Shown here in pieces: positions 25,311-61,519 of a stretch of 64,000 nt of DNA (position 1 is the stretch's first letter; every line of letters begins with the position of its first letter). The notes under the pieces were generated by a model. The model did no database searches. It worked only from the letters and a program-made list of their open reading frames with translations, and was not told the origin of the DNA. The position numbers and the translations under genes are program-made. Origin of the DNA: Rugalucina vietnamica (lineage: Eukaryota > Mollusca > Bivalvia > Lucinida > Lucinidae); the NCBI GenBank assembly GCA_964017185.1, contig OZ024876.1, positions 16,194,226-16,258,225 of the forward strand, in the 5' to 3' direction.

Positions 25311-27735
25311 AGTAAGTAAGTAAGTAATAGTTTATTAATGTGTCACATATTATTATATACAGACATACTATACATATAAAACGTTACTTATGATAATAAC
25401 ATCCAGCCATAAAGGCTTATGAGACACGCTATAAGCTGTGCATTGCATTAAAACTCTATATTAAAATGCATGTAAAACATGTTCTAGTTTAAGATAAAAC
25501 AATTTCAATCCGCATTATTGAATGGACATGTAATGTAATCATAGTTTTAAGACGCATAAGACCATTTTAGTTAAAAAAAAGAATAAAATGTGTATAGAAG
25601 TGTATTCATTTTATACATATTCAAAATTAGAGTGACATATTGAACGGACAACGGTTCACTGCATGCGCTTTCTTCGAGCGATCATTTGTAGTAATGTAGA
25701 GGAAAAATATGTTGCATATTGACGTAATTCATAATAAAGATGAACTTATCATCCATTGATAGGGTGTGAAATGCTGTATTACAAGTTTGAGCCTTTTCAA
25801 ACAACGGACGTCTGAGATCGGAATAAAATTCACATACCATCAATAAATGAATTTCATCTTCTACGCAGTTATTCTGACAAAGTTTACATGTTCTTTCTAA
25901 GAGCGGCACCTTAGGTTTAGCGTAGCGACCAGTCTCAATATTAAGTGGTAAACTTGCACTTCTGAATTTGGCGGTGAGTCCTATCCATATTAATTTTCAC
26001 ATATGGTTCAGGAATTAGATCCGACTTATAAAGCCTATATGTACGCAGTTTATTGCCATTTTCTTGGCCACGATCATCCCAGAGATTATTTTTCCAACAA
26101 TCAATGTCTATAGCTTTCAGTTTTTCTGTAGCACATACCACCTTTTTCTTCGAGGAACAGTTTTTCGTTAAAAGGTCCTGGAGATCATTTTTACTCAAGA
26201 AATTTCTAAAACGACTCCCATGCTTTACCATGTGTACCTGACCATTGGAACACCTTTTTTACCAATCTTGCATCATCAGTGCTTTGAATTCAATTTTCTG
26301 TTTCATGTAACAACAGGTCCAGCCCATGTCGCCCCGCGATGCAATATTTGCAGCATTTTTACCTAAACCCGGAAAATACCTACATGCTTTGTTTTGTATA
26401 GTATTAATTTTCGATTGCTCACTCAGACCTCAAATACCTGCCCCGTAGAACAACACTGGATCGACCAGAGATTCACACAATTTGCTAAAAACACTGTAAT
26501 CCATGCCCCCAACATTCAAAAATTTAGTATACAATGCAGACAATGCCCTGCTTGCCGATTTAGCAAGTTCACAGACAGTAAATTTCATGTCGAGGTGCTC
26601 CTGGAACCACATTCCTAGGTATTTATACGAGTTTGTTATCTCTAGGTTTTTATTACCACATGTAAATTCAAAATTACATTGGTCTTTACCACTAGGTCGA
26701 AAGTGAATAACTTTAGTCTTGTCTTGATTAATTAGAAGTCTCAATTTTTGACACCATTCATTAAGAGTATCAAGCATACGCTGCAAAGACTGTTCAGTTG
26801 GTGCAATAAAGATAACATCATCTGCGTACAACAGAAGAGAAAATTGTTCACCATCAATATCAACACCGCACCCACGAGCATTTATATTTTCTGCTTAATC
26901 GTTCACATACAGGGCGAAAAGCGTTGGCGATAACCGACAGCCCTGCTTTACGCCAATATCAACATCTAGAAACTGAGTTATAAGACCGTTTACATTTATG
27001 GCACACTTCACATCACTGTAGAGCGATTTGACGGCATTTAGTATTCTACCATTAAGTCCCATTGCGTATAGTTTATACTATAAGCACTGGCGGTTAACGG
27101 TATCAAACGCCTTTTTTTGCGGCAACAAAGCAGGCGTAAGTTGGTAGTTTACGTTTAATTTACGTTTGTTGATAACGCTATACAGTGTATAAATGTGCTC
27201 CATACAGGACCTGTTTTGTCTGAAACCGTTTTGTTCCTCGACAAGAAAACTATTTTCTTCAATCCAATTTGACAACCTAATGTTTAATATATCCGCATAA
27301 ATTTTGCTTGTAATAGATATCGAAGTAATGCCTCGGTAGCTCAGAGGGTCACGTGGGTCTTTACCGTCCCCTTTTGGTATAGGTTTAATTAGCCCAATAT
27401 TCCATTCACTAGGCACAGTACCCGACTGAAAACAGAACGTTATTATTTTATGTAATGATTCGACACACACTGGATTTCGGAGAACTTCCGCGGGGATATT
27501 ATCTAACCCTGCGGCCTTCCGTAATTTCGCCCGCATAACACATTTCTCGACCTCCTCCATGGTAATATCTGCATTTAACGCTGATAAATCGACATTGTCA
27601 CGTTGAACGGTATTATTTTGTAATGCTTCTTTGACATTACGGTGATGAGTCTCATCGAACGTAACATCGCCGCTGTCTTGGAATAAATTTTGGTTGTCAT
27701 TTTTCCAGCGTGTAAGAACATCGCCGACATTTGTG
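25311..27735 (-). pseudogene. Decayed LINE, minus strand (LINE-B), 5' truncated
   Basis: Read on the minus strand, this is the ORF2 of a non-LTR retrotransposon broken by frameshifts. From 27735 it gives the RT approach segment (AGLDNIPAEVL, LIKPIPKGDGKDPR, SYRGITSISITSKIY, EEQNGFRQNRSCMEHI), interrupted near 27100 at KAFDTVNRQ. The catalytic box MYADDVIFIAP lies at about 26800-26831, followed by INQDKTKVIHF and SYKYLGMWF. The C-terminus has a CCHC finger (CKLCQN...HLLMVC) at about 25830-25895. The 3' end has TTTATTA-type poly(A) signal sequence and a (TTAC)n tail, visible as GTAAGTAAGTAAG at 25311. The endonuclease region is absent. It lies head to head with LINE-A. Confidence 0.85.
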
Positions 27736-29091: not shown

Positions 29092-30694
29092 CTTTAATCT
29101 AATGAAAGAAAAACTTCTGGATTTGATAGAGTGGACCTTCAAAAGGGCATTAAAAAACTATGGTTCACTTTATTTGGCATGTAATGACAGAAAGGCTTTT
29201 TTCACTTCCTCTGACCAAAGTCGGTATACACTTTGGTCATGTCAGAATATGTGCGACGCCTTATCCTATCTCCTGGATAATATCTATATTAGATTTAGGA
29301 CCAAGTTATACAAACAAATTGTTGGAATTCCGAATGGTACAAGTTGCGCACCTCTCGTAGCTGTTTTATTTTTATACCACTACGAAAGAGATTTCATGGA
29401 TTCTCTTAACCATGATAATCAAGCTGATGTTATCGAGGCTTTTAATTCCACTTCTAGGTACCTCGATGACCTTTTGAACATTGACAACCCTTATTTTGAA
29501 GGTATGGTCAATCAAATTTATCCATCTGAACTACAGTTGAACAAAGCCAGTATCTCGGATAACGAAGCCCCCTTTTTAGATCTACATCTTTCTGTTGCAA
29601 ATGGATTTGTTTCTTCTAAAATTTATGATAAACGCGATGACTTTGATATTGATATAGTAAATTTTCCGTATTTGGATGGTGACGTTCCTCGTCGCGCTTC
29701 TTATGGTGTATTTATTTCGCAACTTATTAGGTTAGCTAGAGTCTGCAATCATGTTACAGACTTCAACGCTCGAAATAAATGTTAAACGGCCAAACTTCTC
29801 AAACAGGGCTATCGGTATCATAAACTTCGAAAAACCTTTTCTAAATTTTATCGTAGACACTATGAATTGATTTCCAAATACAATGTTGGGTTAAAGACGC
29901 TTTTAAATGAGGGTCTCTCGGAACCAGAATTTTATGGTGACTTGGTTTACAAATTTAAGAAACTTATAGGAAGTAATGATTTTTCTTTTCAGTTTAGAAA
30001 AATCATAACACGTTACAGACGTATAGGTTATAACTTGAATGTTATGCGACAGTCTGCATGCTTAGTTTTTAACCCAGTCATGGTTGATAACTATGCTGCC
30101 TTCTTTAATTGCACGCCAGTGGGTCGGGCGTCAGACTCTATGATGGCCCCGACTTAAGGCTATTCATTTTAGTTGGTTGGGGCCGGAGCTTCTTGTCTGT
30201 TGCTTGGCCCACCGGGGTCCAACTGATGTTTTTCTTTTGCTCCGGAGTTAGTAAGTTATTCGGCGCCCAGGGATCTCTATCGTCGGGCAGCTTACTGAAT
30301 CTGTGGGTCCTGGTTTTTGATTCATCAGGACGTTTATCATGATTTATTTGTTTGTTCTTGATGATTCATTGACTAGCTAGAGATTCACCACGAGGACCAA
30401 AGAACTAACAAAATGTTATGAGACACTGCAGAAGCTGAGGGTGGGGTTATGGCCATGTAAAATCGATTTAAGCCCGCCAGTAACTTTGTGTTGCTGATCG
30501 TTCCAAGTCCATACTTCTGTGGTGGTTCTTTTTGTTTTATGTCTTGGTGTTTAAAATTTTTGTGCTGTTGGCGCCTTATGTATGTTTTCATATTTTTTGT
30601 TAAGTTAAGGTAACTGAGTGGCCACCTATTGGGAAAATAGCTGCTCATTCGGCTTACGAAATGTTTTCATGGTATAAGTGTCTGATTGTTAGTT

Positions 30695-30733
<39 letters not shown>

Positions 30734-30800
30734 AGTTGGAATCTTTTTCTGATTGCGCCTTTTCCTGATATTTGCCTACTTGTACCTTTTTATAATAAAG
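29092..30800 (+). mobile_element. YLDD-RT retroelement inserted in LINE-A (copy C)
   Basis: The element interrupts the LINE-A RT just before its motif A. It has a coding part (29102-30157) and a 640-bp non-coding 3' part shared with the copies at 52, 23775, 37760, 51205 and 54990. A T-run of about 39 nt lies at 30694-30732. The 5' end is truncated because the RT begins mid-domain. Class is uncertain: the YLDD box and the FLDL segment suit Penelope-like RTs, but no GIY-YIG endonuclease is present. Confidence 0.75.
29102..30157 (+). pseudogene. RT fragment with YLDD box (one in-frame stop)
   Basis: The reading frame starts mid-RT with a weak finger region. It then shows VGIPNGTSCAPLVAVLFLYH (primer-grip-side motif), the catalytic box STSRYLDDLLNID, and the following APFLDLHLSVANG strand. 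A long basic C-terminal part (YHKLRKTFSKFYRRHYE, RYRRIGYNLNVMRQ) ends SDSMMAPT. A single TAA at 29783-29785 interrupts an otherwise continuous frame of about 351 codons. The GTSCAP motif and YLDD are intact, the N-terminal fingers are missing and no endonuclease is seen. Probably inactive. Confidence 0.78.
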
Positions 30801-31830
30801 ACACCTTTGCTGCATTTATCTACTTCACAAAAAGCTTACGATAGTATAGATAGGGGAATCCTGTTCGCAAAACTTTCAAATTTAGGCATCTCGGGATTAA
30901 TGTATAATGCACTATTATCAATTAATGACAACGTCCGATGTTCCGTGAGAATAAACGGAAAACTCACTGAATTGTTTAATGTAAGCTGTGGCTTGAAACA
31001 GGGTTGTTCTCTTTCCAGCATTCTTTTTAATTTATACATCAACGATTTAATTATTAAGATAAACTCTTTAGACATTGGCATTGAAATTGACGGGGAAAAT
31101 GTAGGCATTTTAGCCTATGCGGATGACGTTGTCTTACTCGCAGAAAATGAACATGAACTCCAACTATTAATCAACGAACTTAACACATTTGGTGCGATAA
31201 TAATAGGTTGGAAGTAAACGTCAGCAAATCCAAATAATTAATTTTAAAAATCGATCAAAACCTTTAAGCACTGTAGAATTTAGATACGGACATAAAACGC
31301 TAGAAACAGTATCTATATTTATCTTGGTTTACTTTTATCAGAACAGTTAAAGTACGCGAAAAATGGCAAAACAGGTCGCAAACTTAGCAAGCAGGGCGCT
31401 GAGCCTTCTCATTACAAAATTCAAAACGGCAGGCGGATTACTTTTTTCGACGTTTACAAAGTTATACAACAGTACAGTATTGAGCGTAATAAACTACGGT
31501 GCATCAATTTGGGGGTGTAGACAATTTTCATTCGTTAAAGCAGAACAAAACCGCGCACTTAGATTCTTTCTTGGTGTCGGAAGATACAAATGTATGCACC
31601 TAATGCTGCCGTTAATGACGATTCAGGCTGGGACTCGATATACCCAATACAATGGCGATGCGTAATGAATCAATGGTGTAGAATAAAGCTCATGGATCTC
31701 TTAGAATTTACCAATAATCCGTAAACTACGGCAACTTCCGAAGTAAAAACTGGGCATACAGAATTAAGCAACTGATGGATGATTACCTTACGGGAGATTC
31801 TTTACGGGAGATATTTTTCCTACGGGATCA
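30800..31830 (+). pseudogene. LINE-A segment 2: RT palm and thumb
   Basis: LINE-A resumes with motif A (AFIYFTKAYDSIDRG, one frameshift), where the usual Asp of the F-I-D-F motif reads Tyr. It continues with LKQGCSLSSILFNLYINDL, the catalytic AYADDVVLLAENEHE at about 31107-31150, then a frameshifted thumb (KQVANLASRALSLLITKF, YGASIWGCR at about 31495). The frame then decays until the next insertion at 31848. Confidence 0.85.
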
Positions 31831-41107: not shown

Positions 41108-41699
41108 GAGAATAACCGACCATGTTCGATATGACTTGAAATGTGTCAAAACATTGTAAGGCGTAAAATCAAAATCTGCGCATAAAAATAAAGATCAACT
41201 AAATGTTTCAAATCGTAAATCTTGCCATGTTGACAAGTATAAAGTTTTCTGTCCGTTCACGAACAACACGTGAAAATGTAGCTTAACAGAACCAATGTAT
41301 GTATATACAGGTGCCAGTATGTAAAAAGTCACATGACGATAACAAATAGTTGATAATGTTTTTTTTTTCACCAACAGTCGTCATATGAAGACGGGACCTC
41401 GGTTTATAGTGTCACTATAAAGGCATGAGCAGCTCAAAATCGAACTAGCGACCCCTAGTTATACACACGAATTTCATAAAAAATCAGATTCCGCATTGAA
41501 ACCTGTTAAAATGGAGGCATTTTATTCGCACCAAGCATTTGTAAGGCCGACTCGCATGTATCTTTAAAGGCAAACATGGTATAGTTGATATATGATGTGA
41601 TTTTGTAAACATGTGTCAAACGTCACTTCTGGTTCTTTGTTCCAAATAGAATTAGACAGTTAAACGGGAAGACAACAATAAGCATTGCGTGCGTGCGTG

Positions 41700-41749
<50 letters not shown>

Positions 41750-42395
41750 AGCGTAAAATTCAGACTAATAGTGTTGTCCTGTTTTAGGGTTAAGCAAGGT
41801 ACGCAGCATAACTAGGGAGCGCGGTGGTGTAGTGGTAAAGCATCTGACTAAAAAATTGTTTACTCGGACGTTAAGCCTCAAAAAATGTTTCTCAGTTTTT
41901 ATAAACATTTCTTTTTTTTTTTTAAATTAATATTGTGATAGTTTGAGGTTTAATTATATTTATTTGAATTCAACCAGATAAACAGCACGCATACTACAAG
42001 AGAATCATGAGGATCAGAAAGAAAGCCTCTGGCTTGCAAAATTCATCTCAAAAAGTGTTATTTTCGCACTCGATATGGCTGAAATACTGTTGAAGGTCTA
42101 CAAAACTTCAAACGATCTGTATGGCTATGTCTAATGTAGCTAGGATATCGCACTTATTACATGCAGATGACTGATGAATGGATTTCAAAACGAAACACCA
42201 ACCAAATAAACCACATCAAGCTTTCGAGTATGAAATACATGTATAAACATGCTAAAATAAATTATTGAAACTGTAGTTTTTACACACTTTTTATTGAAAC
42301 TGTAGTTTTTACACCTCTTAAATGTACATACATCTGTATGTATTAAAATTATTGAAACTGTAGTTTTTACACCTCTTAAATGTACATACATCTGT
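41054..42395 (-). repeat. Right arm of the large inverted repeat, inner part
   Basis: It is the complement of 34990-36375, with insertions and deletions, a (TG)n tract at 41703-41745, and a local duplication of a roughly 60-bp block (TTGAAACTGTAGTTTTTACA) near 42265-42400, next to the LINE insertion point. Confidence 0.75.
41816..41862 (+). mobile_element. Truncated SINE head
   Basis: GAGCGCGGTGGTGTAGTGGT and AAAGCATCTGACT match the tRNA-derived head of the SINE at 20211; the remainder is missing. Confidence 0.5.
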
Positions 42396-42622
42396 ATGTA
42401 TGAAAAAACCCGGAAGTGACGTTCGTATGTAAACAATGAATTTTGAAATTGTCAAGAATAATTAGAAGATTTTAACCAAATTCAATGTCTACAAGGTCGT
42501 GATTATTGAAAATAATATACAGTCAGGTGAGGAAGAAGTGTCCCTTATAGCCGACGACGTTTGAATTTCGAACTCTTAGCCGTTTCTTAAAAATCAGTGA
42601 ATATCCGACCACCGCAACTGTA

Positions 42623-45001
42623 ATGGATGACTTCATCAGTGTCTTCGTTGATGGGGCATGCAGAAATAATGGACAGGAGGACCCCCAGGGGGGATGCGGC
42701 GTGTTCTGGGGCGAAGAAAACCCTCTCAACGTAAGTGAGTACCTTGTTGGAGAGAAGCAAACAAATAATCGAGCAGAATTGACCGCCGCAATAATCGCAT
42801 TAGTCCAAGCAAAGCACAGTCAAATGAAGCAAGTCCAGATTAGTACTGATAGCAAATATGTTAAAGAAGGGATAACCAAATGGATACTTCAGTGGAAAGC
42901 AAATGGCTGGAAAACTAAGCAGAAGTCAGATGTCCTGAACAAAGATCTGTGGATCACATTAGACAAGCTCTCAAGTCAATTACAGTTGAAGTGGTGCTGG
43001 GTAGAGGGCCATGGTGATGTTGCTGGTAATCTTAAAGCGGATGAGCTCGCGAAGTCTGGAATTTCTTCAGAAAGTTGCCATTGGCAGGAGTTGGTAAAAT
43101 CCATAGAGGAGGAAAGGAGTAGCGAGACAAAATCTACAAGAGAGTCAAGAAGGAGCGATGTTCAGCAAGGAAAGGAGACGCGGAAGAGTGATGTCATATC
43201 AGAGAAGAAATATAACTGCGGAACCTGTAAGAGTCCAGTCGCAGATGATGGTATTCAGTGCGGAGACTGTAAACTTTGGTTTCACTATACATGCTCTAAA
43301 CTGCCAGCCTACCAGTTATACATGTATGAGAAATCACAAAGAAAGTATACATGTGAAACTTGTTCAAATATGGATACAGAATTCAATAGAAAATTTGATG
43401 AAATGATGGCTATGTCAGGATCAGATGAAAAATGCCAAGAACAGAGTAGAGGAGTGAAAGATCTTTTTGAATACCCTGTTGTCCAACCTGGGAAATATCT
43501 TGAATCAGAAACACAAACAGGAGTGGAACATGTGGACAGCTGTATCCAAACAGATAAACCATCAGATGGGAAACAGATGAGTGACAAATGCATCCAGCAT
43601 GAATCAGATAGTGACGGAAAGACAAAAAAGGGAAAGTCAGCTACAACCGATAGAGAGACACAAACACCGGAATCCTTCACTTCCATCGACAAATGCCTAA
43701 CTGATTTCCAAGACGTAACCGTTCAAAGACTTGAAAGTAGCTTTATTAATGCCATCGACAACTTCGCTAAAGTTCACAATAATACTACAAACTTACAGAA
43801 CCAGATAAGAAAATTGACAGAAGAAAGGGACAGTTTGAAAACACAGAATCAAGAGACTTCATCAAAACCTGACAAGAAATGTGATAATTGCCAAACACTT
43901 TCATTGAAAATTGAAAACCAAGACAGAGAAAATAAGAAACTAAAACAGCAGATATTTGAAGTAAACCTCGAGAAAGAAATGGTCGCAGCCAAACAGCAAA
44001 GTGCCTTATCAGTTCTCAACCAGAAATATGAGTCATCCAAAACCCAGGCAGGGATTATACAACAAGATGTAGAAAATATGGAGAAAAGACTGAAAATCAA
44101 ATGTGAAGTTATATTAGAATTGGAAGAAAAAGTCAAGAAACAGAATTCTGATTTGCTACAGCCACAAGATGAAGTTCTGGCATGGAAGATGCACGCATCT
44201 AGAAAAGATGACTCTCTTGTCCAGCAGGGATCTATGAAAGTCCAGGAACAGGTGCAAGAGCTGCCAGCTACTGAATCGCGGGCGAAAGTGAGGAGTCAGA
44301 AAGAAGAAAGTAACGTTAGAGAAAAATCATCTACACCGAGTGAAGAACCTGTTATCGACATTGAAGCCATACCTGACAAGAAGTCAGTGCTGTTGATTGG
44401 AACTTCAAATATCAAATATATCGATGCTAACCGATTGTCCAGCACAGAAGTAGAGGTGCAGAAAACCACGAAATACACCCTCAAAGAAGGACAGGAGTAC
44501 ATAGACCAGATGAAAGAGAATCCTGATGCGGTCGTTTTGCATCTGTTTGAAAACGACATGGAAAAAGAGACACCAGAGGATTGCGCTGCAAAGGTACACA
44601 ACATATGTACAGACATTAAACAAAAAGCTAGAAATACCAAAATAGTCGTATCGATGGGACTACCACGCAGAGAGGAGGGCATTAACCGTAAAGTCATGAA
44701 ATTAAATGTCCTTCTACAGGAGAAGTTGGCGGATATGGAAAGCGTATCTCTGTGTGATAACGGGAATCTGTTTTATCGGGGGCAACCGTCTAAAGGAATT
44801 CTGAACGCTGACGGTAAACATCTGTCGCGCCTTGGCACTCAGAAACTCAGTGCCAACCTGAAGTCTTCGATCCATAAAGCTCTAGGACAATCGAATGGGA
44901 ACGGAAGATACAGGCCATCCAATGGGTTCAATGGTAGACGAAATGGCGGTTCACGGCGGGATAGACCGAGATATGGTTATTATCATGGACGATATAATTA
45001 A
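42623..45001 (+). CDS. LINE ORF1 protein: RNase H, PHD finger, coiled coil, SGNH esterase-like, RG tail
   Basis: 792 codons. Residues 4-147 form a complete RNase H1-like domain: Asp10 (VFVDGACRNNG), Glu52 (NNRAELTA), Asp76 (ISTDSKYV), His130 (VEGHGDVAGN) and Asp140 (KADELAKSG), with the handle-like GITKWILQWKANGWKT at 83-98. Residues 199-247 are a PHD finger (Cys199, 202, 213, 216, His221, Cys224, 244, 247). About 365-520 is a charged coiled coil. About 585-755 is SGNH-hydrolase-like: GTSN with Ser595, ENDM with Asn644, DGKH with Asp730/His733. 756-792 is Arg/Gly/Tyr-rich and could bind RNA. PHD and esterase modules are known in ORF1 of CR1-group LINEs; an N-terminal RNase H is not something I know there. 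Closeness to host RNase H1 suggests capture. Confidence 0.92.
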   Translation: MDDFISVFVDGACRNNGQEDPQGGCGVFWGEENPLNVSEYLVGEKQTNNRAELTAAIIALVQAKHSQMKQVQISTDSKYVKEGITKWILQWKANGWKTKQKSDVLNKDLWITLDKLSSQLQLKWCWVEGHGDVAGNLKADELAKSGISSESCHWQELVKSIEEERSSETKSTRESRRSDVQQGKETRKSDVISEKKYNCGTCKSPVADDGIQCGDCKLWFHYTCSKLPAYQLYMYEKSQRKYTCETCSNMDTEFNRKFDEMMAMSGSDEKCQEQSRGVKDLFEYPVVQPGKYLESETQTGVEHVDSCIQTDKPSDGKQMSDKCIQHESDSDGKTKKGKSATTDRETQTPESFTSIDKCLTDFQDVTVQRLESSFINAIDNFAKVHNNTTNLQNQIRKLTEERDSLKTQNQETSSKPDKKCDNCQTLSLKIENQDRENKKLKQQIFEVNLEKEMVAAKQQSALSVLNQKYESSKTQAGIIQQDVENMEKRLKIKCEVILELEEKVKKQNSDLLQPQDEVLAWKMHASRKDDSLVQQGSMKVQEQVQELPATESRAKVRSQKEESNVREKSSTPSEEPVIDIEAIPDKKSVLLIGTSNIKYIDANRLSSTEVEVQKTTKYTLKEGQEYIDQMKENPDAVVLHLFENDMEKETPEDCAAKVHNICTDIKQKARNTKIVVSMGLPRREEGINRKVMKLNVLLQEKLADMESVSLCDNGNLFYRGQPSKGILNADGKHLSRLGTQKLSANLKSSIHKALGQSNGNGRYRPSNGFNGRRNGGSRRDRPRYGYYHGRYN

Positions 45002-48000
45002 TGACGAATAGACATCAATCATCTATAAACATTGGTTACTGGAATATAAATAAGTTAATTTCTAAACAGGCTGATAAATCAAAAGACATTTTATTTAATA
45101 GAAGTCTTGAAAAATGTGACATTATTTGTTTAGCTGAAGTAAAAAGTGACATCAGTACTTGCAATTTTAGTGAACATATTCTACATTACATAGAAAGAAA
45201 ATCTTCAAAGGGTAAACAGCATTATGGTGGCTTAGGCATATTAATAAAAAGAAATTTAAGAAAAGGTGTAAAATATTTGTCATCTACATGTTCTGAATAT
45301 CAATGGCTTTTAATGGATAAAAACTTTTTTGGTTTTGATAAGGACCTATATGTATGTTTTGTGTATATACCACCACAATATTCCTCTTATTATATTGACC
45401 AAAACATTGATTTTTTAGAAATGGTAGAAACAGACATTGCAAAATACAAGAAATTAGGGTCAGTGATGTTAATGGGAGATTTTAATGCTAGGACAGGTAC
45501 TGAAGATGATTTTATTATGAATGATGATGACAATTATTTACCCCTGCATGAAGATTATATTATTGACTCTAATATTGTTCACAGAAATAGTAAGGATACT
45601 AAGGTTTGTTCAAGAGGAAGAGAGTTATTAGAAATATGCATTTCAAGTAGACTAAGAATTCTAAACGGTAGGAGGTTTGGTGATTTGCATGGTAAATACA
45701 CATCTTACCAATATAATGGTAATAGCGTTATAGATTATGGATTAGTATCTGAAGAACAAATGTCAAATGTATTATACTTCCATGTTGATGAACCTATCTT
45801 AAGACTGTCTGATCATTCTAAAATTTCTGTCAGAATATTTGCTAACTTTTTTCAAGATGAACATAAACAGAATTTAAAAGATTTTCCAGAGCAATTTAAG
45901 TGGGATGATTTTTCACCTCAACTTTTTTATAATGAATTACAGAGTGGAGAAATTATGGATAGATTGCATGATGTTTTAGATATGCAAATAAGCAATGCAG
46001 TTGAAGTTAATGATATTGTAGATAAATTCTCTGAAATATTGTACAGTGCTGGTAATAAGTGTCTCAGGAAAAAGAAAATTAGGAAGAGTAAATTTAAGAG
46101 GAATAAAAAATGGTTTGATTTAGACCTCTTGAAAATGAGAAAAACATTAGATTTCAAAGGTAAGCAATTTGCAAAGTACCCTAATGATCCTATAGTCAGA
46201 GGGAGTTTTTATAGGTACAGGAAATTATATAGTAAGTTGTGTAAATTTAAGCGAAAACAATATAAAGCTAACCTTATTGATCAATTAAATAACCTATTTG
46301 AGAAAGATCCTAAGGCATACTGGTCACTCTTAAATGAACTAAAAGATGATAAAAAATCGACGACAGAAACAATGACTTCATCTGAAGAAATGTCAGAACA
46401 TTTTTCTAATCTTAATACTCTTCCATCTAAATTTCAAGAAAGAGCAAAGGAAGTAGAGGAGTTATTGAAGCAAGCAGAACGCAGTCAATCCTTTAATAAA
46501 CTCGATTTTTCTATCACTGAATCTGAAATTACCAAAAGTTTAAGTGCTTTAAAAAATGGTAAATCATCAGGGTTGGATTGTATATGTAATGAAATGCTAA
46601 AATGTGGTAAATCTATCCTGTTGCCTTGTATCTTGAAAATATTTAATGCAATTTTACAGGTTGGTGTTTATCCCCAAGCATGGAAAAGCGGTTATATTAA
46701 CCCTATTTATAAGTCAGGTTTAAAGTCAGACCCATCAAATTATAGGGGTATCACCATTATGAGCTGCCTGGGAAAACTTTTTAATTCCATACTTAATGCT
46801 AGACTTGATAATTTTTTGAATGAGAATAGGGTAATTAGTAAAACGCAAATTGGATTTCAAAAACAGGCGCGCACATCAGATCATATGTTTGTTCTGCGCA
46901 CATTGATTGAGAAATATACATATCAAAGTAAAGCACGGTTGTTCACATGCTTTATAGATTTCAGAAAAGCATTTGATTCAGTTTTACATCAGGCATTATT
47001 TTTGAAGCTGCAGAACTTAGGCATATCTGGATTGTTTTATAATATTGTTAAAAATATGTATTTAGGAAATAAATTGCGGATTAGAATAGGCAATAGTCTT
47101 ACTGAAGAATTCGAGTCAGAACTGGGTGTTAGACAAGGAGATACGCTTAGCCCTAATTTATTCAAGATATTCATAAATGACTTACCAAGAATTTTTGATG
47201 AAGATTGTGATGCTGTTAGTTTAGGAGATTGTAACTTAAACTGCCTTATGTATGCTGATGATGTTATACTCTTATCTAAAAGTGAAATAGGTTTACAAAA
47301 CTGTCTTGAAAAACTTGAAGCCTATTGTAAGAGATGGTGTTTAGATATAAATATTAATAAAACAAAAACAATTGTATTCAATAAGACTGGAAAATTATTA
47401 CCCTATGAATTTTATTTTGATGGAGAGTTGATAGAAAATGTGAAAACTTATAAGTATTTGGGAGTGGTTTTTGCTGCTTCAGGATCATTTTCACATGCAA
47501 GAACGGATCTGTACAAGCGAGCTCTTAAGGCATTTTTCAAACTCAAAAGTATTTTTGGAGATTTATCCCCGAATATAGATACTAGCTTACATATATTTGA
47601 CCATACAGTTAAACCTATTTTGCTATATGGAAGTGAAATTTGGGGTTTATGTTCGCCATCATCAACAGCTTTAAAGAATGAAACAGAATTCAAGTTAGAA
47701 AAGGCATATTCCAATTATGAATGTGAAAAATTAACAACTAAATATTATAAGTATGTGTTAGGTGTACATAAGAAATCTACTAATTTAGCAGTTTACGGTG
47801 AATTAGGTAGGACACCTTATTTTATAGATATAATCGGTGGAGTTATAAAATATTTCAAGCGCATTCAAAATATGGAAAGTGATAGCCTATTAGCGCAGAG
47901 TCTGAACACAAGTAAAGAACTATTTAATAATGGTAAGCAAAGTTGGTATACAGGATTGTCATTTATTTTTGATCAACTTAATATTGATGATAATATGAGT

Positions 48001-48489
48001 GTGCATGAAATCAAATCATTACTTATTAAACGTTCAATGGGCTACTGGGAAAAACAGATTAAAGAAAATGCAGTTGATAAACAAGGAAAACTACGAACTT
48101 ACTTTTGTTTTAAACCAAAATTCAAGAAAGTAATATATCTCCGCATCATTCAAAATAGAGAGGTCAGAAAATGCTACACAGAGTTTAGAATAAGTGCCCA
48201 CCAATTAGCTATTGAAAGAGGCAGGTACAAAAATGTTAAATCAACTGAAAGAATTTGTAAAAATTGTCACACCAATGAAGTTGAAAGTGAAATGCACTTT
48301 TTGCTACAATGTCAGAAATATCAAGAGGAACGTAATAAATTATATTTGTATTTGAAGAGTACATACAAAAATTTTAATATCTTGACAGATGAAAATAAAT
48401 TTATATGGCTTCTGACAAATGAAAATGAGGATGTCATACAAAAACTCTCGAATTTTATTTTTACCTGTTTGGAAATCAGGAAGCAATAA
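45001..48489 (+). CDS. LINE ORF2 protein: APE-type endonuclease, reverse transcriptase, CCHC finger
   Basis: 1162 codons. Residues 8-280 are the endonuclease: Asn15 (GYWNINKL), Glu46 (CLAEVKSD), Asp160/Asn162 (LMGDFNAR), and Ser270-Asp271-His272 (LSDHSKISV). About 510-830 is the RT: KSSGLDCICNEML, NYRGITIMSCLGKLF, KTQIGFQKQARTSDH, motif A FIDFRKAFDS with Asp653, GVRQGDTLSPNLF, catalytic YADD at 751-754, KTKTIVFN, and YKYLGVVF. A C-terminal CCHC finger (CKNCHTNEVESEMHFLLQC) spans 1086-1104. The start codon overlaps the ORF1 stop in TAATG, which suggests translation by termination-reinitiation. It has no RNase H domain of its own, so that activity would come from ORF1. All catalytic residues are present. 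Confidence 0.95.
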   Translation: MTNRHQSSINIGYWNINKLISKQADKSKDILFNRSLEKCDIICLAEVKSDISTCNFSEHILHYIERKSSKGKQHYGGLGILIKRNLRKGVKYLSSTCSEYQWLLMDKNFFGFDKDLYVCFVYIPPQYSSYYIDQNIDFLEMVETDIAKYKKLGSVMLMGDFNARTGTEDDFIMNDDDNYLPLHEDYIIDSNIVHRNSKDTKVCSRGRELLEICISSRLRILNGRRFGDLHGKYTSYQYNGNSVIDYGLVSEEQMSNVLYFHVDEPILRLSDHSKISVRIFANFFQDEHKQNLKDFPEQFKWDDFSPQLFYNELQSGEIMDRLHDVLDMQISNAVEVNDIVDKFSEILYSAGNKCLRKKKIRKSKFKRNKKWFDLDLLKMRKTLDFKGKQFAKYPNDPIVRGSFYRYRKLYSKLCKFKRKQYKANLIDQLNNLFEKDPKAYWSLLNELKDDKKSTTETMTSSEEMSEHFSNLNTLPSKFQERAKEVEELLKQAERSQSFNKLDFSITESEITKSLSALKNGKSSGLDCICNEMLKCGKSILLPCILKIFNAILQVGVYPQAWKSGYINPIYKSGLKSDPSNYRGITIMSCLGKLFNSILNARLDNFLNENRVISKTQIGFQKQARTSDHMFVLRTLIEKYTYQSKARLFTCFIDFRKAFDSVLHQALFLKLQNLGISGLFYNIVKNMYLGNKLRIRIGNSLTEEFESELGVRQGDTLSPNLFKIFINDLPRIFDEDCDAVSLGDCNLNCLMYADDVILLSKSEIGLQNCLEKLEAYCKRWCLDININKTKTIVFNKTGKLLPYEFYFDGELIENVKTYKYLGVVFAASGSFSHARTDLYKRALKAFFKLKSIFGDLSPNIDTSLHIFDHTVKPILLYGSEIWGLCSPSSTALKNETEFKLEKAYSNYECEKLTTKYYKYVLGVHKKSTNLAVYGELGRTPYFIDIIGGVIKYFKRIQNMESDSLLAQSLNTSKELFNNGKQSWYTGLSFIFDQLNIDDNMSVHEIKSLLIKRSMGYWEKQIKENAVDKQGKLRTYFCFKPKFKKVIYLRIIQNREVRKCYTEFRISAHQLAIERGRYKNVKSTERICKNCHTNEVESEMHFLLQCQKYQEERNKLYLYLKSTYKNFNILTDENKFIWLLTNENEDVIQKLSNFIFTCLEIRKQ

Positions 48490-48693: not shown

Positions 48694-48956
48694 CAAGTTT
48701 TCTTTTTTGTCTACTCAGTAGAAGTTCATGTCTGTAAGGCTCTATTTCTAGAAATAAGATGAAATAGAAAAGAATAATCCATAAAAACTACCTTAATTGG
48801 TTTAACCTATCTTTTCCTAATATATGGTAGGCGTGTTGTCTTGATTGCATGCATTACTGTACATATATGTTTATAAATGCTGTGTTGTATGCCCTATGAT
48901 CGGGCCCCTTGTGGAAATAAAGAATATTCTATTCTATTCTATTCTATTCTATTCTG
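48490..48956 (+). terminator. LINE 3' UTR, poly(A) signal and ATTCT tail
   Basis: A T-run lies at 48667-48694, AATAAA near 48918, then a pentameric (TTCTA)n tract ending TTCTG at the junction with the arm sequence. Confidence 0.75.
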
Positions 48957-49616
48957 TACACTATACTTTTTGAGTAAGTGCCTTACTTCCGCGGAAAACA
49001 TTAATGCCATTCAGGGTGGCTAACTTACGCTTGCCACATTATTCCTGTACAAGCATTCAGTATATAAATATTTTCATGTTTCCATGTTTCCAAGAAAGAA
49101 ATATTGACAAAAGGATCGCTTGCAGATCCGAGCTCCCGATTTCAATGGGTTAAAAGTCAACAACAGAAAAACATATATGTGGGCTGCCGTCTCACATTTC
49201 AATTCCTAAATACGATTTAAGTATTAAATGCAGTAGAGCATCCCTTGATTCTTGCATTTGCCAATAAATATAATCAGCTTATAATATAATATTATTTTCT
49301 AAGCTTTATTGACACAGGGGACACAAATAAAATAAAGAGAAAAAAAAAGTCTCGGCCGGGACTTGAACACAGGCTCTTCCGCTTTGAATGTTAGCACGCT
49401 ACCTACTGCGCTACGGAGATAGACGTTCTAACTTACTACACTTTTTGCCTGTCTTAATTATTCGTCTCTGTTGGGCTTTTGGTAGTTTTGACACAGTAAT
49501 TCTTCATATCGCCCCTCGTCTTCGTCGCAGATATGCCCTCACGAGTCGTCCCCCATCACACAGAAAGTGGTAACTGCAAGCGCCAGCAAAATTTGCGTTC
49601 AAAAGTGAAAAATGTC
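48953..49616 (-). repeat. Right arm of the large inverted repeat, outer part
   Basis: It complements 34329-34990: TACACTATAC, CTTACTTCCGCGGAAAAC, GCCACATTATTCCTGTAC, CTCACGAGTCGTCCCCCATC, GTTCAAAAGTGAAAAATGTC. A tRNA-like head lies on the minus strand at about 49345-49430 (A box TAGCGCAGTAGG). Confidence 0.75.
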
Positions 49617-58935: not shown

Positions 58936-61519
58936 CAGCTCCACAGCAGCACAAATCAGTGCAAAACAAATTGTTTGCTTTGCACTTGCATCGAGAAGTT
59001 TCGCACGCAGTCTTGTTGCAACCACATTTGACCAGCTGCAGAAGTGTATCGGGGGCTGGAGGCAATGTTGTCATAACGGGAATATATTTACTGTCGAGAA
59101 ATTTTCGATCCGAGTAGAGTCTGCAATATGACAGGCATTGCTTGCTGGCCCCCTAATCGTACAGAGTGTTTCAGTTTTCAGCGATCTTTCCACGTCATAT
59201 CTGTCAAAAATGAGAGGAACCGTTTCATAGCGGTCAAACATCTGTGTGACTTTGGTGCAAAAATGATCTGAAAGGTCTTTGCAAGTTTTGATAGATTTTG
59301 GTTTGTCCAAACTCTGTACAATAACCATTGCATCTACAACAGCAACCCTATCTGTCTTTTCAATATTTTCTGTACAAGCATTTGTCGTCGTCATGTCTGC
59401 TTTCTTTTCTAGAATCGCCATGAGCTTACTCTTCTCGGAACAATGATGCATTGAGCCGTCCGCGGCAAACAAGGCTCTTGGAACAACAGATAACTCATAT
59501 GTACCTATAGTATCTTCAAGGCTGATTTCTGGTCTGGAATTTGCACTAATTAGCATTCTTGCAAAAAGGCCTCTGTCTTCTTTCAGTTCAACAGTTTTGT
59601 CCCAAACTTTGAGCTTGGTTTCTTTCAATGAGCTTTTCCAAGTTTTGAGAGACAGTTTCTTCATAGGGTCCCAGAAAATTGTGATTCTTGTCTTCAATCT
59701 GGATTCAACTAATTCATCAAATTTACCTGATCCTTTTTGCTCAAGGGTTTCAATGTCTCTCTGAATATCAACAGCTACTACTGCTTTTGACACAATATTG
59801 ATAATATCATCACCGTCATATTCAAAGGGATTAGTGAAACCTTGCAGAGTCGTTGTCAGTGACAGAGCTGACACAATTACCTTCGTTCGCGCTGTGTTTG
59901 TAAGTTCATAGTGCTTGGAAGAAAGATTTTTCTCGACGTCAGCGTTCTGTTTTGATTCAACTTTGAGCCTTGCCAATTCAGGGGCCACTAAGAAGAATCT
60001 TGTCCGGGCCGTCTGATTCTTTGTTATCCCAACAATGCACCGGCTACCTTCATCCATCGGTTTACCTGTTCTAACGCATGATCTGCACGTAGCACACAAA
60101 CTGCAATCTTCGACTTATTTACAACCCAATTACCACTTACAAATTCTTCCAGAGTGTAGGATTGATCTTTTGCAGTGACAACATTTCTGACAGGTATAGT
60201 GGGATCATTCTTCCATAGTTCAGCCTGTCTGTTGCAAAGAAGTACTTAGTGAACTGCTCTAGTGCATTCAAATGCATTGCCCAGTCGCCATTTTGAACAG
60301 CCTTGATAAATTCTAGCATCAACATTACCATCCGAATATACCAACATTGCCTGATATATCTTTTTGCCCTCATGTTGAAACTAGAAAATATAGTCTCAAA
60401 GTTCGATGCCGTCATATACTGTTGCAGCACCTCATGTCCCTTAGAAATCTTCTCGATGGAAGAGAGATTACTGCAGTTGTCAATGAATTTTCCAACTTCC
60501 CCATTACTTTCACAGAATAATTCGGCGTTGAGCTTAGAAAAAGCCTCCATGTTCATGGAAAACAGTGATAAGAGGGTGATGGTGTGCGCTTTTACTCCTC
60601 ACTTGACATGATTCCCATCTATGATTTGCTTAATGGTTGTCTGATCACACAAGTCGACATGAAGCCACGCTGCGTCTATTCCAGAACTGTCAGTGTAGCA
60701 TCCAATTGTTCTTAACATTGCAATAACTACATGAAGTTCGCCAGGTCGAAGAATGATGTTGCTACATTCATTTTTATTGCCATTAGCAATTTTTGCGCTG
60801 GCTTATACAGACCCAGGTCAAGTGATATAACTGTTTTTCTTTCTTCTCCTACAATTACTGCACTTATACCCTGTGCTTGTTTGAGAACCGTCAACAGTGT
60901 GGACAACTCATGCGCCGGTGCAGCAATTAATGGTGGGGTTGATACACGAGTTAACGGCAGTAATTTGCTTATAATGGAATTCCAGAACTGTCAGTGTAGC
61001 ATCCAATTGTTCTTAACATTGCAATAACTACATGAAGTTCGCCAGGTCGAAGAATGATGTTGCTACATTCATTTTTATTGCCATTAGCAATTTTTGCGCT
61101 GGCTTATACAGACCCAGGTCAAGTGATATAACTGTTTTTCTTTCTTCTCCTACAATTACTGCACTTATACCCTGTGCTTGTTTGAGAACCGTCAACAGTG
61201 TGGACAACTCATGCGCCGGTGCAGCAATTAATGGTGGGGTTGATACACGATTTAACGGCAGTAATTTGCTTATAATGGAATTCAGAGCTGACCAAGTCGG
61301 TGGACCTGCCACACTTTGTTCAGTGTCTGGTTCCACACTGCGTGTAAGGCCACAGATAGCCGCTAAAAGCCAGCACAGATCGTTAGAATCCGATGTCTTA
61401 TTAACAGATGTTGGAAATTGTCCTAGTTTCGGACATTCTGGCTTTGCATTATTTGAAAAGTTGATATGATTTGTGTAAAAATATTGCTGGTGGTGTGTAT
61501 GCGTATGACTTTTGAGCAA
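58936..61519 (-). pseudogene. Broken transposon gene: possible PIN-like segment and C-terminal CXC motif
   Basis: Minus strand, N to C. 61519-61028 (163 codons) starts inside the right arm and contains PPTWSALNSIISKL; it is frameshifted at ILRPGELHVVIAML. 60556-60137 holds a helical segment ending RLNYGRMIPLYLSEM. After another shift, 60099-59071 gives ITKNQTARTRFFLVAPELAR, EDRGLFARMLISANSRPEIS, VVPRALFAADGSMHHCSEKS, then VAVVDAMVIVQSL and VPLIFDRYD, whose spaced acidic residues recall a PIN/FEN-like nuclease core. Past 59071 a second frame carries TLPPAPDTLLQLVKCGC and the cysteine array C-x-C-x4-C-x4-C-x-C-x6-C-x3-CCC (59033-58936), a tesmin/TSO1-type CXC zinc motif. The stretch expected between FDRYD and CXC looks deleted. 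The overall layout matches a recurrent uncharacterised invertebrate protein type; function unproven. Confidence 0.68.
60680..61281 (-). repeat. 301-bp tandem duplication inside the transposon gene
   Basis: 60680-60980 and 60981-61281 are identical except for about one base (ACACGAG versus ACACGAT). 301 is not a multiple of three, so the duplication shifts the frame. It is flanked by GGAATTC. Confidence 0.92.

What the first reader, a model, noticed from the sequence alone, without database searches (positions are those of the whole stretch)
42623..43063. Complete RNase H1-like domain at the N-terminus of a LINE ORF1
Seen: all expected catalytic residues (Asp10, Glu52, Asp76, Asp140) and the loop His130 lie in the first 147 residues of ORF1, ahead of a PHD finger and an SGNH esterase-like domain. 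Known: where LINEs carry RNase H it normally sits at the C-terminus of ORF2 (I, R1, Tad, LOA groups), and CR1/L2-type elements usually lack it. Inferred: a host RNase H1 catalytic domain, handle region included, was captured into ORF1, putting RNA-DNA hybrid removal on the nucleic-acid-binding protein rather than on the polymerase. I know of no described element with this order, but I cannot search.
Basis: partly seen in the sequence, partly recalled or inferred. Interest (0 to 1): 0.88.

Follow-up and report, generated by a model that had tools for sequence, protein, structure and literature searches.

The report
RNase H1 enzyme inside a LINE's ORF1
An intact jumping gene (LINE) carries what looks like a complete copy of the cell's RNA-from-DNA-hybrid-removing enzyme, RNase H1, at the front of its first protein instead of on its copying enzyme, and a family of related elements keeps it.

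Summary
ORF1 (42623-45001, 792 aa) of an intact two-ORF LINE begins with a full RNase H1-type domain (Pfam E 6e-37; best solved relative human RNase H1, E 6e-37). A C4HC3 PHD finger, long helices and an SGNH esterase domain follow; the family profile matches the zebrafish ZfL2-1 ORF1 esterase. ORF2 (45001-48489) has endonuclease and RT but no RNase H. It is a family: 24 of 27 ORF1 relatives found, 30-99% identical, list RNase H. 32 of 38 family domains, window included, keep all five catalytic residues, and RNase H is the best-conserved part of ORF1. Trees put the family on one branch, apart from LINE-ORF2 RNase H, but do not identify the donor, and a sister relation to ORF2 RNase H is not rejected; host capture is inferred. 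Most likely it removes template RNA after first-strand synthesis, in place of the host RNase H2 that LINEs without RNase H need (PMC6068448). Ten searches of open-licence papers found no ORF1 RNase H; Repbase was not searchable. New variant of a known kind.

The parts
42291..42406 (+). tandem repeat upstream of ORF1, two copies of 58 nt (a partial copy from 42259), probable 5' UTR
   Evidence: the repeat finder; that it belongs to the element is inferred from position
42623..45001 (+). ORF1, 792 aa
42623..43063 (+). RNase H1-type domain, residues 1-147; catalytic D10, E52, D76, H130, D140; handle about residues 82-98
43208..43372 (+). PHD finger (C4HC3: C199 C202 C213 C216 H221 C224 C244 C247)
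   Evidence: weak PHD matches in PDB, E about 0.001
43670..44200 (+). long helices (residues 350-410 and 421-526), probable coiled coil
   Evidence: AlphaFold model; coiled-coil role inferred
44372..44890 (+). SGNH esterase domain; S595, N644, D730, H733
44891..44998 (+). Arg/Gly/Asn-rich tail of low model confidence, candidate RNA-binding tail
   Evidence: sequence, low pLDDT; RNA binding inferred
44999..45003 (+). TAATG: ORF1 stop overlaps ORF2 start
45001..48489 (+). ORF2, 1162 aa: endonuclease (EEP) and reverse transcriptase, no RNase H
48925..48959 (+). 3' microsatellite-like tail, (TATTC)n

Best explanation
The window holds an intact APE-type LINE whose ORF1 protein carries an RNase H1-type nuclease domain at its N-terminus and an SGNH esterase domain at its C-terminus, joined by a PHD finger and a probable coiled coil. 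Shown by sequence: intact ORFs, full active site, handle and most hybrid-contact residues, conservation across a diverged family, no RNase H in ORF2. Inferred: ORF1p multimers coat the element RNA and travel with ORF2p to the target; ORF2p nicks DNA and copies the RNA; the ORF1p-borne RNase H then cuts the template RNA out of the RNA:cDNA hybrid so that the second strand can be made. The RNP does not destroy its own RNA because RNase H cuts only hybrids. This would free the element from host RNase H2. Also inferred: the domain was gained once, from a cellular-type RNase H1, before the family diversified.
For: Domain identity. Family: 27 of 37 hits are ORF1 relatives and PF00075 is listed for 24 of the 27; the other 3 (P0005, P0008, P0010) are shorter ORFs that begin inside or after the domain (only the 7993 candidates sharing most words were scored). 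32 of 38 family domains (window and 37 relatives, some near-identical) keep D/E/D/H/D; N16, T47, N48, N49 and N106 stand in 37 or 38 of 38, W87 and W91 in 37 of 38, while the five LINE-ORF2 RNase Hs lack most of these. Median identity to the window by part, 16 relatives: RNase H 61%, PHD 49%, SGNH 39%, helices 28%, as expected if the domain is selected for. One branch: 98/96 (without P0155), 95/82 with P0155, 95/78 on the thinned set. PF00075 is listed for none of the 66 nearest ORF2 relatives P0039-P0104 of 103 hits. Mechanism: LINE-1 and ZfL2-2, which lack RNase H, need cellular RNase H2, and RNase H1 overexpression partly rescues LINE-1 in RNase H2-null cells (PMC6068448, abstract and passages).
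Against: No activity, expression or retrotransposition was tested. Five family domains have one changed catalytic residue (P0143, P0145, P0151, P0014, P0155) and P0157 lacks the start. Four contact positions differ from human: K45 for Arg, N49 for Gln, N15 for Ser, K99 for Ser. The donor is unresolved and a sister relation to LINE-ORF2 RNase H is not rejected (p-AU 0.117). ORF1-ORF2 linkage in relatives was not seen in DNA; the only hint is that P0023 and P0042 come from contigs of the same length, 9955. No codon-level selection test was possible because the genome searches did not complete.
Confidence: 0.72

Rival explanations
1. The domain is a LINE-ORF2 RNase H that moved within retrotransposons from ORF2 to ORF1.
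For: LINEs with an ORF2 RNase H are in the same protein collection (P0107, P0118, P0122, P0123, P0129); p-AU 0.117 does not reject a sister relation; domain shuffling of ORF1s is known in CR1/L2 elements (PMC4120745).
Against: The five ORF2 domains form their own branch (100/99), lack the handle and most minor-groove residues and match a family-seeded profile weakly: best E 1.4e-14, against 4e-61 or lower for complete family domains and 8e-54 for the deep member P0155. They sit on very long branches, so their place is unsure.
Confidence: 0.08
2. The RNase H came from a non-animal source (protist, fungus, bacterium or virus) rather than the host's RNase H1.
For: The row that joins the family is P0158, an RNase H1 with its N-terminal hybrid-binding domain from an unnamed organism (87/77, 85/78; not joined); fungal, dinoflagellate and bacterial rows are not separated from human on the unresolved deep branches.
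Against: Human RNase H1 is the best solved match by sequence and fold, above E. coli; bacterial rows stand on a long branch of their own.
Confidence: 0.25
3. The domain is kept for another job: a hybrid- or RNA-binding module in the RNP, or removal of hybrids that would trigger host sensing, not completion of cDNA synthesis.
For: It sits on ORF1p rather than the polymerase; ZfL2-1 retrotransposes in HeLa cells without its ORF1p (PMC3905857, passages), so ORF1 enzymes can be accessory; the deep member P0155 has a changed catalytic Asp (D76 to G).
Against: The full catalytic set is kept in 32 of 38 rows, more than binding alone needs.
Confidence: 0.2
4. Assembly or insertion chimera: a host RNase H1 gene fused by chance to one LINE copy.
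For: None found.
Against: The same order recurs in many proteins at 30-99% identity, some on short contigs of other sources.
Confidence: 0.01

Closest known systems
LINEs with esterase ORF1 (Type IV ORF1 of CR1 and L2, also RTEX; ZfL2-1)
   Same: ORF1 with coiled coil and SGNH esterase, ORF2 with EN and RT; the family profile matches the ZfL2-1 ORF1 esterase 4c1b, E 5e-8
   Different: An RNase H1-type domain and a PHD finger precede the helices. Schneider et al. 2013 call the esterase domains unique among ORF1ps in harbouring an enzymatic function and found no structural RNA-binding domain in esterase ORF1ps of RepBase (PMC3905857, passages)
PHD-bearing ORF1 types of CR1 and L2 elements (Metcalfe and Casane 2014)
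   Same: PHD finger in a modular ORF1
   Different: The terms RNase H, RNH and ribonuclease do not occur in that paper's main text and no ORF1 type in its Table 1 holds RNase H (PMC4120745, passages)
LINEs with ORF2 C-terminal RNase H (I, R1, Tad, LOA groups: from the finding and recall)
   Same: The element encodes its own RNase H with the D-E-D-D site
   Different: Here it is on ORF1, keeps the handle and most hybrid-contact residues, and is a separate branch
Plant and oomycete L1 elements with archaeal-type RNase H
   Same: Gain of a cellular-type RNase H by a LINE
   Different: There archaeal-type (Arg) at the ORF2 C-terminus (PMC5348765, passages); here the His type, at the ORF1 N-terminus
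Eukaryotic RNase H1
   Same: Catalytic domain with handle, 41% identical to human
   Different: No N-terminal hybrid-binding domain (PF01693 not among the hits); fused to PHD, helices and esterase

Membership tests
RNase H1-type (type 1) RNase H domain | D-E-D-D active site plus loop His | tested here: met
   D10, E52, D76, H130, D140 in the window; complete in 32 of 38 family rows
RNase H1-type (type 1) RNase H domain | Handle region and hybrid-contact residues of the cellular enzyme (roles recalled) | tested here: met
   GITKWI..WK.NGWKT; N16, T47, N48, W87, W91, N106 as in human; K45, N49, N15, K99 differ from human
RNase H1-type (type 1) RNase H domain | Cleaves RNA in RNA:DNA hybrids | not testable with these tools
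   needs biochemistry
Eukaryotic RNase H1 protein | N-terminal hybrid-binding domain (Cauli_VI, PF01693) | tested here: not met
   absent from the Pfam hits of ORF1 up to E 1
APE-type LINE | ORF2 with EEP endonuclease and RT | tested here: met
   PF03372 E 1.3e-7, PF00078 E 2.7e-38
APE-type LINE | Target-site duplication | tested here: inconclusive
   no shared word of 9 or more bases between 41700-42420 and 48945-49100; the true 5' end is unknown
Esterase-type LINE ORF1 (Type IV) | SGNH fold with catalytic S, N, D, H, preceded by coiled coil | tested here: met
   S595, D730, H733 in 17 of 17 and N644 in 16 of 17 rows; 4c1b E 5e-8; helices 350-526, coiled coil inferred
CR1/L2 clade by RT phylogeny | RT groups with named CR1 or L2 elements | not tested
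   no clade-named reference RTs were at hand
LINE with ORF2 RNase H (I-type) | RNase H after RT in ORF2 | tested here: not met
   no PF00075 among the ORF2 hits up to E 1, none listed for P0039-P0104

The most novel reading that the evidence does not exclude
A LINE lineage moved hybrid removal from the host (or from its polymerase) to its ORF1 protein by a single ancient capture of cellular RNase H1. This gives a two-enzyme ORF1p (RNase H plus lipid esterase) that makes the element independent of host RNase H2, and means that ORF1p acts catalytically in completing target-primed reverse transcription.
Probability: 0.5. Interest if true: 0.82.

Novelty: new variant of a known kind. Interest (0 to 1): 0.74.

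Why it matters
How LINEs without RNase H get rid of their template RNA was described as unknown until host RNase H2 was shown to serve LINE-1 and ZfL2-2 (PMC6068448). An element that carries an RNase H1-type domain on ORF1p is a natural experiment for that model: it predicts independence from RNase H2 and a catalytic role for ORF1p after reverse transcription. It also extends the known modularity of ORF1 to a second enzyme and puts RNase H gain by a LINE outside the polymerase ORF.

Tried and rejected
Chimera by assembly: rejected, since many relatives share the order. Origin inside LINE-ORF2 RNase H: not supported, although a sister relation is not rejected (the groups tested there were chosen after the earlier trees were seen). 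Host donor: could not be fixed; few cellular rows bear an organism's name (human, the fungus P0161, three bacterial pieces; Racocetra P0163 was left out of the trees). Target-site duplication: none found. DNA context of relatives: three viral-contig scans gave pattern matches (8, 8, 1) but no confirmed relative; a genome-contig scan with A1 could not run for want of a conserved stretch and was not repeated; the own-genome search did not complete. Clade of ORF2: left open. An ORF2 tree (69 rows, quick method, LG+G4, rows of 1080 aa or more only) puts the window's ORF2 among 53 rows without a listed ORF2 RNase H, and no row bears a clade name. In one search the second RNase H model, PF13456, is listed for P0129, P0135 and P0137 only, all distant. 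RNase H-less PHD-esterase relatives: none among the 27 ORF1 relatives except 3 shorter ORFs, but that search used words from the first 500 residues and scored a capped set.

Rows dropped: the domain set took hits spanning at least 96 profile positions (63 rows with human); P0009, P0153, P0037 and P0038 fell out there and P0005, P0008, P0010 had no hit. One search left out P0002, P0148, P0033, P0035, P0157, P0163, P0159, P0031, P0151; one search left out these and P0165, P0166, P0167, P0160, P0164, P0152, P0020 (the last two and P0152 are family or long rows; P0152 and P0020 stood inside the family); one search thinned the family to 15 rows. rest on the window and 16 of 27 relatives. The 38 rows include near-copies (P0002 of the window, P0148 of P0011). 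Alignment A2 holds one domain piece and 17 full-length relatives, so the profile spans all of ORF1; only its positions 578-754 concern the esterase. 4c1b is not in the 50 rows shown; it was found by profile. The full ORF1 model has pTM 0.31, so the placing of its domains to each other is not predicted.

Papers: PMC4120745, PMC11203168, PMC5408684, PMC10294476, PMC5348765, PMC6068448, PMC3905857, PMC8392823, PMC3849965 and PMC9115989 were seen as passages found by term, no whole text; PMC7528939 is not held, so Kapitonov and Jurka 2003 was not read. Of the ten paper searches some listings were capped: 20 of 27, 20 of 36, 25 of 29, 15 of 114. LINE groups with ORF2 RNase H and residue roles in human RNase H1 are recalled.

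Full report
What is there. The window contains an intact two-ORF LINE at about 42.3-48.96 kb on the + strand. ORF1 is 42623-45001 (792 aa) and ORF2 45001-48489 (1162 aa), overlapping in TAATG. Two 58-nt repeats lie upstream and a (TATTC)n tail downstream. ORF2 has an EEP endonuclease and a reverse transcriptase and no RNase H in Pfam; its RT matches human LINE-1 ORF2p and R2 structures.

The domain. Residues 6-147 of ORF1 match Pfam RNase_H at E 6e-37, and human RNase H1 is the best solved sequence match, E 5.8e-37 over residues 1-146. The AlphaFold model of ORF1 has mean pLDDT 69.5 and pTM 0.31 overall, with block means of 77-94 over residues 1-150. It matches human RNase H1 best, Foldseek E 7.7e-17, TM 0.95 by target length, 41% identity; the E. 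coli RNase HI rows listed below it have TM 0.70-0.79. All five catalytic residues are present, as are the handle with its tryptophans and N16, T47, N48 and N106, which in human RNase H1 contact the hybrid (roles recalled). Four contact positions differ from human: K45, N49, N15 and K99.

It is a family. A search with ORF1 gave 37 proteins, of which 27 (P0002-P0028) are ORF1 relatives at 30-99% identity by best local alignment. PF00075 is listed for 24 of the 27; the other three are shorter ORFs that start inside or after the domain. A search with the domain gave 28 proteins, 15 of them further members by my reading; P0155 is a deep one, on a 1625-base contig, with RNase H, a PHD match under its cut-off and helices by eye. 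32 of 38 family domains keep the complete catalytic set; five have one change and one lacks its start. RNase H is the best-conserved part of ORF1: median identity to the window 61%, against 49% PHD, 39% SGNH, 28% helices and 17-20% for the linkers, over 16 relatives. A near-identical ORF1 (P0002, 99%) and ORF2 (P0039, 100%) stand for clusters of 14 and 18 member sequences, which may mean recent copies or merely repeated assemblies.

Where the domain comes from. In trees of 54 and 50 rows the family is one branch (98/96 without P0155; 95/82 with it) and the five LINE-ORF2 RNase Hs are another (100/99 in both). On the thinned set of 33 rows the family has 95/78, under the star. The deeper order is unresolved. 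Holding the family with human and P0156 is not rejected (p-AU 0.238), and holding it with LINE-ORF2 RNase H is not rejected either (p-AU 0.117); the ORF2 rows are on very long branches. The separate-origin reading rests more on discrete features: the handle and most contact residues are present here and absent in most of the five ORF2 domains. The trees hold few named cellular RNase H1 sequences, so 'captured from the host' is an inference, not a result.

How it most likely works. LINEs that lack RNase H need cellular RNase H2, and RNase H1 overexpression partly rescues LINE-1 in RNase H2-null cells (PMC6068448). PF00075 is listed for none of the 66 nearest ORF2 relatives, so in this lineage the enzyme seems to sit on ORF1p, which is expected to be abundant on the element RNA. 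The likely role is cutting the RNA out of the RNA:cDNA hybrid at the target before second-strand synthesis. Every step after 'active-site residues are present' is inference. A binding or anti-sensing role stays possible.

What is known. The ORF1 types described for the Jockey superfamily (with RRM, CCHC, PHD, esterase or transposase-22 domains) include no RNase H (PMC4120745), and esterase domains were called unique among ORF1ps in harbouring an enzymatic function (PMC3905857). Plant and oomycete L1 elements gained archaeal-type RNase H at the ORF2 C-terminus (PMC5348765). Ten searches of open-licence full texts (four listings capped) and passages of ten papers showed no ORF1 RNase H. Subscription papers, Repbase and Dfam were not searched, so a database entry for this family may exist.

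Verdict. I rate it a new variant of a known kind (a LINE with a new ORF1 enzyme), not a categorically new system.

Noticed in passing
protein P0036, not in the window: LINE-like protein of 1310 aa in the order endonuclease (32-249), RNase H (342-478), RT (709-954): RNase H between endonuclease and RT, another unusual place.
   Followed up: partly
proteins P0029 and P0030, not in the window: P0029 holds three tandem RNase H domains in 487 aa, the outer ones weaker; P0030 fuses a cytidylyltransferase-type domain (CTP_transf_3) to a C-terminal RNase H.
   Followed up: no
proteins P0032 (Polarella glacialis), P0034, P0162: RNase H1-like domains that form their own branch; P0032 also lists an RT domain, so this may be a separate gain by protist retroelements.
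   Followed up: partly
protein P0106, Mytilus edulis: One frame holds an SGNH esterase (Lipase_GDSL_2) and a stretch 37% identical to 21% of the window's ORF2 (its endonuclease part by eye), with no RNase H hit: a possible RNase H-less relative.
   Followed up: no
window 27078-27560 (-), 29102-29785 (+), 30753-31217 (+): Fragments of other reverse transcriptases; only the last passes the Pfam cut-off, and the middle one is a weak match (E 0.03).
   Followed up: partly
window 59071-60099 (-): A 342-aa ORF from a TTG start without a Pfam match up to E 0.1.
   Followed up: no
window 41686-41755: A TG-rich microsatellite upstream of the element.
   Followed up: no
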